From: Methanosphaerula palustris E1-9c
GTDB taxonomy: Archaea > Halobacteriota > Methanomicrobia > Methanomicrobiales > Methanospirillaceae
Length of the DNA: 64,000 nucleotides
Reading direction: 5' to 3'
NCBI RefSeq assembly: GCF_000021965.1
Contig: NC_011832.1
Span: 2,459,242-2,523,241, forward strand
The position numbers were made by a program, and so were the translations under genes. The notes below the pieces were generated by a model that did not search any database, was not told the DNA's origin, and saw only the letters and a program-made list of their open reading frames with translations. Below, in pieces: positions 2,012 to 5,030 of this stretch; position 1 is the first letter of the stretch; the number at the start of each line of letters is the position of its first letter.

Positions 2012-2301
2012 TGTACGTCCAGGTTCTGCCTGAATACGGCCTTGTCCTCGACCCAATGGTCGGGATCGTCACCACCGCAGGGGAATCCTTTGCACCGGTG
2101 CTCGAACAGATCGCCATCCTCGAATCGGCATCAGATGATCTGGTGAACATGCTCTCTGGTGAGGGGATCCTTGCATCCTCGTTCCCAGGAAGAGAACAGA
2201 CTCTGAAGATCGCAGGAGGAATAAGCGCCTTCTGGTATGGTATCGCAGTCGGACTATTCATCGCAGGTATCATCGCCTTCGAACTGGTCAAGGTGAAGTG
2301 A
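2011..2301 (+). CDS. mtrB: MtrB, methyltransferase complex subunit B
   Basis: A 96-residue protein: a soluble N-terminal region with the family-type opening [19 protein letters not shown], a short helix-rich middle, and one C-terminal membrane helix ([20 protein letters not shown]). This matches the known MtrB design of a small anchored subunit. It overlaps mtrC by one base. The sequence beginning at its stop codon (from 2298) is the left end of the 530-bp repeat found again at 3244. Confidence 0.92.
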
Positions 2302-2827
2302 GGTATCGAGAATGGCAGATAAGAAATCACCAGCCAGTGGATGGCCAATTGTCCAGGGCGACTTCCATTCAGGGGATGCAAACAGCCCGGTGGCAGTCAT
2401 TACCATGGGCTCACACCTCGACGAACAGGGAATCTGCGATGCAGGCGCAGCCATATGCGGCTCCTGTAAGACAGAGAACCTCGGGCTTGAGAAGGTCGTT
2501 GCAAACGTCATCTCGAACCCGAACATCCGCTTCGTCCTGCTCTGTGGGACTGAAGTGAAAGGGCACCTTTCAGGACAGTCACTCCGCCAGCTCCACTCAT
2601 CAGGTGTTGACAAGGGGAAGATCGTCGGTTCCGAAGGTGCTATCCCGTTCATCGAGAACCTCGATGACGCGGCGATCAAGCGCTTCCAGGAACAGATCGA
2701 GATCGTCAACATCATGGAGAGCGAAGATCTCGGCACCATTAAGGCAAAGATCAACGAACTGAAGGGCAAAGACCCTGGTGCGTTCGCTGGCGATGCCATG
2801 GTCGTCGAGGTCAAGGAAGCAGGCGGC
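2298..2827 (+). repeat. 530-bp near-identical direct repeat, copy 1 (mtrB stop codon to mtrA codon ~172)
   Basis: Copy 1 of a direct repeat offset by 946 bp from 3244-3773. By eye only three differences are visible (2371 A versus 3317 G, and two adjacent bases within codon 158). The repeat begins at the stop codon of the gene upstream and ends inside the MtrA linker, so it carries the intergenic leader, the ribosome-binding site and the cytosolic domain but not the membrane helix. Confidence 0.95.
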
Positions 2828-3034
2828 GCGGCAGAAGAGTCGACCGGCGAAGTACAGCCGCTATCAGGCGAAGTTGTGCTGGTCCACGCAAGGATGAAAG
2901 TGATCGAAAAGATGATCACTGACATCGGGTACTGGGACCGATATGCAGCAGGCGTCTACTCAGGCAAGGTCGAAGGGCTGATGATCGGCCTGATCGTCTC
3001 ATTCGCACTGATTGGATTCTTGTTGATGGGGTGA
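2312..3034 (+). CDS. mtrA: MtrA, corrinoid-carrying subunit A
   Basis: A 240-residue protein with an N-terminal cytosolic domain (about 1-170) that carries the cobamide prosthetic group and alternates between methyl-H4MPT (via MtrH) and coenzyme M. The family motif [10 protein letters not shown] is at 81-90; His85 corresponds in position to the cobalt-ligating histidine known in other MtrA proteins. A variable linker (175-200) leads to one C-terminal membrane helix ([18 protein letters not shown]). The start is preceded by GAGGTATCGAGA. Bases 2298-2827 recur at 3244-3773. This copy keeps the normal MtrA tail, so it is the canonical subunit. Confidence 0.95.
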
Positions 3035-3040
3035 TCTGAT

Positions 3041-3247
3041 ATGGCAGAAGAAGGCTCAAAGGCTGCTGGACCCATCAGAATGGTCGCCATAAACAATATG
3101 GTCGAAAACATGCGCTACAAGTCGCAGATCCTTGCAAGAACCAACAAACTTGAGTCCGGTATTATGGACTCAGGTCTTGTCGGGTTTGCAGCAGGGATGC
3201 TTGTAGCACTGGTCCTGATTGTGGTACCAGCATTAGTACTGATGTGA
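3041..3247 (+). CDS. mtrF: MtrF, methyltransferase complex subunit F
   Basis: A 68-residue protein with a charged N-terminal half ([20 protein letters not shown]) and one C-terminal membrane helix ([20 protein letters not shown]), as expected for MtrF. It sits directly after mtrA in the conserved order. It begins 6 bases after the mtrA stop. Its own stop codon lies at the left boundary of the second copy of the mtrA repeat. Confidence 0.88.
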
Positions 3248-3773
3248 GGTATCGAGAATGGCAGATAAGAAATCACCAGCCAGTGGATGGCCAATTGTCC
3301 AGGGCGACTTCCATTCGGGGGATGCAAACAGCCCGGTGGCAGTCATTACCATGGGCTCACACCTCGACGAACAGGGAATCTGCGATGCAGGCGCAGCCAT
3401 ATGCGGCTCCTGTAAGACAGAGAACCTCGGGCTTGAGAAGGTCGTTGCAAACGTCATCTCGAACCCGAACATCCGCTTCGTCCTGCTCTGTGGGACTGAA
3501 GTGAAAGGGCACCTTTCAGGACAGTCACTCCGCCAGCTCCACTCATCAGGTGTTGACAAGGGGAAGATCGTCGGTTCCGAAGGTGCTATCCCGTTCATCG
3601 AGAACCTCGATGACGCGGCGATCAAGCGCTTCCAGGAACAGATCGAGATCGTCAACATCATGGAGAGCGAAGATCTCGGCACCATTAAGGCAAAGATCAA
3701 CGAACTGAAGGGCAAAGACCCTGGTGCGTTCGCTGCTGATGCCATGGTCGTCGAGGTCAAGGAAGCAGGCGGC
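3244..3773 (+). repeat. 530-bp near-identical direct repeat, copy 2 (mtrF stop codon to fusion linker)
   Basis: Copy 2 of the repeat at 2298-2827. It places the MtrA domain and its translation signals in front of mtrG and creates the fusion at 3258. Divergence is abrupt at both ends, as expected for a recombination or gene-conversion tract. Confidence 0.95.
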
Positions 3774-3995
3774 TCAACAGAGGTTGCAGCAGCCGGGGCT
3801 AATCCCCAGTTCCTTGAGATGGAGAAGAGGCTCGATGCAATCGAGAAGAAGATCGAGTTCGTGGACGCAGAGATCGCCCAGCGTGCAGGCCGCAAGGTTG
3901 GGAGAGATATTGGTATTTTATACGGACTGGTAGCTGGATTGACAGTATTTATCATACTGCTCGTTCTGCTCTCCAAATTGAATGCGATAGTGTAA
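3258..3995 (+). CDS. MtrA-MtrG fusion: second MtrA corrinoid domain joined to MtrG
   Basis: A 245-residue chimera occupying the place of mtrG. Residues 1-166 match MtrA at 2312 except for one residue (FAADAM instead of FAGDAM), including the His85 motif [10 protein letters not shown]. After a short linker ([12 protein letters not shown]) the rest, about 180-245, is a complete MtrG-like subunit: an amphipathic/coiled-coil stretch ([20 protein letters not shown]), the family-typical [17 protein letters not shown], and a C-terminal membrane helix. No separate mtrG exists between here and mtrH. The gene carries a copy of the mtrA leader and ribosome-binding site. It is open and in frame, so probably expressed. 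Whether this second domain binds corrinoid in the complex is unknown. Confidence 0.88.
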
Positions 3996-4010: not shown

Positions 4011-5030
4011 ATGTTCAGATTTGAAAAAGAACAACAAGTCTGGGATTTCAATGGTACCAAGATCGGTGGGCAGCCTGGAGAACACCCCACCGTTCTCGGT
4101 GCATCGATCTTCTATAACAAGCACGAGATTGTGCTCGACGACCACAAGGGTACGATCGACAAGCCGAAGGCTGAAGCACTCTGGAACCGCTGTCAGGAAC
4201 TGACCGACGAGACGGGTGTACACTTCTTCATCCAGATCATCGGTGAATTTGGCGAGGCGCTCGAGTCCTACTTTGACTGGTTCGCATCGATCGACGACAA
4301 GACCGCCTTCCTGATGGACTCCTCGGCACCTGCAGCACGTATGCAGGCAGCCAAGTACGTCACCGAGGTCGGACTCGCCAACCGTGCGATCTACAACTCG
4401 ATCAACGGTTCGATCAGCCAGGAAGAGATCGATGTCCTCGCAAAGAGTGACGTCGACGCAGCCATTGTGCTCGCATTCAACCCGGCTGACCCATCCGTCG
4501 CTGGGCGCCAGAAGGTGCTCGGCGAGGGTGGTGTCGCAGGACAGTCCAAGGGTATGATTCAGATCGCAGAGGAGGCAGGTATCACCAGGCCAATCCTCGA
4601 CACTGCAGCCACACCACTCGGTCTCGGTTCAGGCGGATCGTACCGTGAGATCCTTGCATGCAAGGGGATCTATGGTCTTCCAACCGGTGGTGCATACCAC
4701 AACATGACCGTCTCATGGACCTGGCTCCGCAGATGGAAGAAAAACCTCGGCACCGTCTATGACGGAAAACCAGCCCTCAAAGACCAGATGCTCAAGCACT
4801 ATGCAAAGGACATCGAGGCCCTCAAGCAGGCAGTCTGGTCAGCACCAGATATCGGCTGCAACCTGATCGCAAGCACCCTCGGTGCTGACTTGATCATGTT
4901 CGGTCCGATCGAGAACATGGAGCCGATGCTGACGACCCAGGCATATGCAGATATCACGATCCTCGAGGCAGCTCGCGATCTCGGTATCGACACCCAGGAT
5001 CCGAATCATCCAATCTTCAAACTCATCTAA
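4011..5030 (+). CDS. mtrH: MtrH, methyl-H4MPT:corrinoid methyltransferase subunit H
   Basis: A 339-residue soluble subunit that transfers the methyl group from methyl-tetrahydromethanopterin to the corrinoid of MtrA. The N-terminus (FRFEKEQQVWDFNGTKIGGQ) and the body, with alternating strands and helices of a TIM-barrel type, fit the MtrH/MeTr pterin-binding family; examples are FLMDSSAPAARMQAAKYV and DTAATPLGLGSGGSY. No membrane segment is seen. It is the last gene of the operon, 15 bases after the A/G fusion with GAGGAGTA as ribosome-binding site, and is followed by a T-run. Confidence 0.94.
   Translation: MFRFEKEQQVWDFNGTKIGGQPGEHPTVLGASIFYNKHEIVLDDHKGTIDKPKAEALWNRCQELTDETGVHFFIQIIGEFGEALESYFDWFASIDDKTAFLMDSSAPAARMQAAKYVTEVGLANRAIYNSINGSISQEEIDVLAKSDVDAAIVLAFNPADPSVAGRQKVLGEGGVAGQSKGMIQIAEEAGITRPILDTAATPLGLGSGGSYREILACKGIYGLPTGGAYHNMTVSWTWLRRWKKNLGTVYDGKPALKDQMLKHYAKDIEALKQAVWSAPDIGCNLIASTLGADLIMFGPIENMEPMLTTQAYADITILEAARDLGIDTQDPNHPIFKLI

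What the first reader, a model, noticed from the sequence alone, without database searches (positions are those of the whole stretch)
3258..3995. Natural MtrA-MtrG fusion replacing mtrG in the methyltransferase operon
The gene at the mtrG position encodes a full MtrA cytosolic corrinoid domain joined in frame to a full MtrG. If made, the Mtr complex would carry two corrinoid domains per unit, one tethered through MtrG and one through the normal MtrA helix. That could change stoichiometry or shorten the path between MtrH and the coenzyme M site. All MtrA residues up to 166 but one are retained, including His85, so it looks selected or very young.
Basis: partly seen in the sequence, partly recalled or inferred. 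Interest (0 to 1): 0.85.

Follow-up and report, generated by a model that had tools for sequence, protein, structure and literature searches.

The report
Known MtrA-MtrG fusion in methanogens
A subunit of the enzyme that makes methyl-coenzyme M in methane-producing archaea is fused to a second copy of the vitamin-B12-carrying domain; this is real and conserved across one whole order (Methanomicrobiales), and it was published in 2015.

Summary
The 245-aa gene at 3258-3995, in the mtrG position of an mtrEDCBAF(G)H operon, is a complete MtrA cobamide domain (Pfam MtrA, residues 4-172) joined in frame to MtrG (residues 184-236). Its MtrA part matches the upstream mtrA at all but 3 nt over 530 nt, and at all but one of residues 1-172.

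It is neither new nor very young. Wang et al. 2015 (PMC4632066) described this gene as mtrA-2b, the mtrA-G fusion of all Methanomicrobiales examined, including 'Mpal' (M. palustris). [quoted passage not shown]

My wider survey agrees. Full-length fusions occur in all six families of the order, and none was among the listed MtrG genes elsewhere in the phylum (frames 73-143 aa). In 38 genomes, paralogues average 95.5% nt identity, orthologues 74.5%. In 35 of 38 the copies are sisters; a two-clade tree is rejected (p-AU 1e-49). His85, Glu55 and Ile111 are invariant in all 76 domains. Pairs that have drifted apart (dS 0.65-1.1) show dN/dS of about 0.08-0.10, so the second domain is under purifying selection.

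What the extra corrinoid domain does is still unknown.

The parts
2312..3034 (+). mtrA-1: MtrA cobamide domain plus its own C-terminal stalk/transmembrane helix (240 aa)
   Evidence: Pfam MtrA, NCBIfam TIGR01111 338.6 bits over residues 1-238
3041..3247 (+). mtrF (68 aa), lying between the two MtrA copies
   Evidence: Pfam MtrF
3258..3995 (+). mtrA-2b: MtrA-MtrG fusion, 245 aa
   Evidence: Pfam MtrA 4-172 and MtrG 184-236 in one frame
3258..3773 (+). MtrA domain of the fusion (residues 1-172), homogenised with mtrA-1
   Evidence: 3 nt and 1 aa differ from mtrA-1
3774..3803 (+). junction linker (about residues 173-182), predicted disordered
   Evidence: pLDDT < 50 at residues 170-189; H85-to-MtrG spacing 128-131 aa in 37 loci
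3804..3992 (+). MtrG part: single long stalk/membrane helix (residues 183-244); lacks the first ~10 positions of the MtrG profile
2298..2827 (+). mtrA-1 side of the homogenised tract (partner 3244-3773)
   Evidence: ungapped comparison, 3 mismatches in 530 nt, abrupt divergence on both sides
4011..5030 (+). mtrH, methyl-H4MPT:corrinoid methyltransferase
   Evidence: Pfam MtrH

Best explanation
This is mtrA-2b, the ancestral MtrA-MtrG fusion of Methanomicrobiales. It most likely puts a second, flexibly tethered cobamide domain on the MtrG stalk helix, so each Mtr protomer has two methyl shuttles between MtrH and the MtrCDE/coenzyme M site. The two copies of the domain are kept nearly identical by ongoing gene conversion. 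Shown here: the architecture, its order-wide conservation, concerted evolution, invariant cobalt-ligand residues and purifying selection. Inferred: that the domain binds cobamide, that both domains work in the same complex, and that the benefit is shuttle capacity.
For: Architecture. Published identity: Wang et al. 2015, and again detected as concertedly evolving in a 2018 genome-wide screen. Order-wide distribution: and named taxa. Absent among listed matches outside the order. Concerted evolution. Constraint and cobalt-ligand residues: with roles of His84, Glu54 and Ile111 from PMC4915002. Topology: the N-termini of the stalk helices, MtrG included, are cytoplasmic, and MtrA's soluble domain hangs on a flexible linker, so a domain added to MtrG's N-terminus would sit in the right compartment. 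The AlphaFold2 model shows a folded domain, a disordered linker and one long helix.
Against: No protein, cobamide or structural data for a Methanomicrobiales Mtr complex were found in the papers searched. Solved complexes are from Methanothermobacter and Methanosarcina, which have a separate MtrG. Constraint on the sequence does not prove that both domains turn over.
Confidence: 0.9

Rival explanations
1. The fusion is a very recent duplication specific to this genome.
For: Only 3 differences in 530 nt between the copies.
Against: The same fusion with the same joint is found in every family of the order, and the MtrG half and linker are orthologous across the order. Near identity recurs in most genomes, which would need many independent identical fusions.
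Confidence: 0.02
2. Assembly artefact created by the tandem repeat.
For: The repeat does break assemblies: several genomes end a contig or have an N gap inside the second MtrA domain.
Against: Single-contig genomes show the same layout, and more diverged pairs (80-85% nt) could not be mis-joined.
Confidence: 0.01
3. The MtrA domain on MtrG is a backup or structural domain without its own catalytic turnover; conversion alone keeps it intact.
For: Gene conversion could preserve a redundant copy; the complex works with one MtrA domain in other orders.
Against: Where conversion has lapsed (dS 0.65-1.1), dN/dS stays at about 0.08-0.10 and His85, Glu55 and Ile111 remain invariant. Wang et al. report both mtrA copies essential, citing Sarmiento et al. 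2013; I did not read that study, and I believe it concerns Methanococcus, i.e. the mtrA-F fusion.
Confidence: 0.2
4. The two domains are specialised, for example one is docked while the other is loaded, or they serve opposite directions or different MtrH units.
For: They are tethered to different helices of the stalk (MtrA helix and MtrG helix).
Against: Homogenisation of the sequences argues against specialisation of the domains themselves; only the tether differs.
Confidence: 0.15

Closest known systems
mtrA-2b, mtrA-G fusion of Methanomicrobiales (Wang et al. 2015, G3, PMC4632066)
   Same: Same gene, operon position, architecture and concerted evolution; 'Mpal' (Methanosphaerula palustris E1-9c) is one of their species.
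   Different: Nothing essential. I add more genomes, the trimmed MtrG N-terminus and dN/dS in drifted pairs.
mtrA-2a, mtrA-F fusion of Methanococcales and Methanocella arvoryzae (same paper)
   Same: Second MtrA domain fused to a small stalk subunit, homogenised by gene conversion.
   Different: Fused to MtrF instead of MtrG; independent origin according to the authors.
Canonical Mtr complex with separate MtrA and MtrG (Methanothermobacter, 8q3v; Methanosarcina, 9qtq)
   Same: All eight subunit types and the stalk topology.
   Different: One MtrA domain per protomer; MtrG is a free small subunit.

Membership tests
[quoted passage not shown]
mtrA-2b (MtrA-MtrG fusion) | N-terminal MtrA domain without its own transmembrane helix, fused to MtrG | tested here: met
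mtrA-2b (MtrA-MtrG fusion) | MtrA domain closer to the same genome's mtrA-1 than to orthologues (concerted evolution) | tested here: met
   99.4% nt against mtrA-1, at most 79% to any orthologue sampled; sister pair with support 100
mtrA-2b (MtrA-MtrG fusion) | Cobalt-ligand histidine retained | tested here: met
   H85 in all 76 domains
mtrA-2b (MtrA-MtrG fusion) | Made as one protein, binds cobamide, sits in the Mtr complex | not testable with these tools
   needs proteomics and purification

The most novel reading that the evidence does not exclude
Methanomicrobiales run the Mtr pump with two active corrinoid shuttles per protomer on different tethers (six per trimer), a working arrangement not seen in the solved complexes.
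Probability: 0.5. Interest if true: 0.5.

Novelty: already known. Interest (0 to 1): 0.2.

Why it matters
Mtr is the sodium-pumping step of methanogenesis. A natural, order-wide doubling of its corrinoid shuttle on a different tether offers a test of how the soluble MtrA domain moves between MtrH and the coenzyme M site. The gene itself and its evolution are already published; only the function of the second domain is open.

Tried and rejected
Recent duplication and assembly artefact were both tested and rejected. Apparent exceptions with a short mtrG frame were checked: L014, L016, L020, L022, L023, L028, L033, L054, L055, L056 and L058 abut a contig end; L057 has an N gap inside both copies; L021 has a frameshift near a contig end. 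The two cryo-EM papers do not mention the fusion. A search for essentiality data on the Methanococcus mtrA-F fusion gave no direct paper.

Full report
Observation. The gene at 3258-3995 (+) encodes 245 aa. Pfam finds MtrA at residues 4-172 and MtrG at 184-236 in the same frame. NCBIfam finds both TIGR01111 (mtrA) and TIGR01149 (mtrG) above cut-off. The operon reads mtrE (partial), D, C, B, A, F, A-G fusion, H. Comparing the two MtrA copies without gaps, the identical tract begins at 2298/3244, inside the upstream gene's stop and the ribosome-binding region, and ends at 2827/3773. It holds 3 mismatches in 530 nt: one silent change in codon 20 and two in codon 160 (Gly to Ala). The MtrG part begins at position 11 of the 64-position profile, so it lacks the first ten or so residues of a free MtrG. 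The listed fusions in the order start at profile positions 5-11.

Not an assembly error. The window's genome is one contig of 2,922,917 bases, and many other single-contig genomes have the same layout. The repeat does harm draft assemblies: the short mtrG frames that I checked abut contig ends, fall in an N gap (L057) or carry a frameshift near a contig end (L021).

Already described. Wang, Chen, Cao and Lou 2015 (PMC4632066) report that Methanomicrobiales carry mtrA-1 and a second copy fused to mtrG (mtrA-2b), and that Methanococcales carry one fused to mtrF (mtrA-2a). Their list includes Methanosphaerula palustris E1-9c. They give 92.4% mean identity for Methanomicrobiales paralogues against 73.7% for orthologues, and attribute this to recurrent gene conversion. 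A 2018 genome-wide screen found mtrA again among concertedly evolving genes (PMC6053082).

Independent check on more genomes. Of 199 genomes of the order, 163 have MtrG over the cut-off. Complete open frames are about 240-320 aa, in all six families. A search of genome contigs names the genera: Methanoregula, Methanolinea, Methanoculleus, Methanofollis, Methanogenium, Methanomicrobium, Methanospirillum, Methanocalculus and others. Across the phylum, every listed MtrG match outside the order lies in a frame of 73-143 aa, i.e. unfused (the list is cut, so some weaker matches were not seen). In 38 genomes with both copies, paralogues average 95.5% nt (median 97.8) and orthologues 74.5%. In the nucleotide tree 35 of 38 genomes have their two copies as sisters; a tree with one clade per copy is worse by 4870 log units (p-AU 1e-49). 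The distance from the ligand His to the MtrG motif is 128-131 residues throughout, and the linker motif NPQFLEIE is shared with small variations, so there was most likely one ancestral fusion.

Is the second domain functional? His84, Glu54 and Ile111 form the cobalt-ligand linkage in MtrA (PMC4915002). The matching His85, Glu55 and Ile111 are invariant in all 76 domains, and 62 positions are invariant in both copies. Four genomes whose copies have drifted far (dS 0.65-1.1; G001, G013, G042, G047) show dN/dS of about 0.08-0.10 (Nei-Gojobori, computed). That is purifying selection on the protein, not only conversion at the DNA level; some past conversion could still blur the estimate.

How it probably works. 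In the solved Mtr complexes, single helices of MtrA, B, F and G form a central stalk with cytoplasmic N-termini, and MtrA's cobamide domain is mobile on a flexible linker. An MtrA domain on MtrG's N-terminus would therefore face the cytoplasm. The AlphaFold2 model gives a folded domain, a disordered linker at about 170-189 and one long helix 183-244 (mean pLDDT 77, helix part less certain). I infer two cobamide shuttles per protomer. Cobamide loading, stoichiometry and any kinetic benefit are untested. The confidence of 0.9 is for the identification as mtrA-2b and its concerted evolution; for two active shuttles per protomer I would say about 0.5.

Verdict. The sequence reading was correct and the biology is real, but the finding is already in the literature and is ordinary for its order. 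The remaining open point is the function of the second corrinoid domain.

Passing lead. The same genome has a third, soluble MtrA homologue outside the window, directly after an ACR3-type transporter gene and an arsC-like gene. Of 16 loci examined (this one and 15 relatives from two searches), 12 have ACR3-type and/or ArsP-type transporter matches within about 2 kb, some of them weak. This suggests a corrinoid protein tied to arsenic handling; I did not pursue it further.

Noticed in passing
L003:1489-2172 (G000:C1:2700145-2700825, outside the window); relatives L140-L155: A soluble MtrA homologue sits directly downstream of ACR3-type (PF01758) and arsC-like genes; 12 of 16 loci examined have ACR3 and/or ArsP-type transporter matches next to it (some are weak). 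Possibly a corrinoid methyl carrier in arsenic methylation or resistance.
   Followed up: partly
window 2298-2827 and 3244-3773; L054-L058: The near-identical MtrA tract breaks draft assemblies, so mtrG or the fusion is often truncated or missing in metagenome-derived genomes of this order.
   Followed up: partly
G001, G013, G042, G047 (L040, L041, L048, L053): Genomes in which conversion between the two mtrA copies seems to have lapsed (80-85% nt identity) while protein constraint persists.
   Followed up: partly
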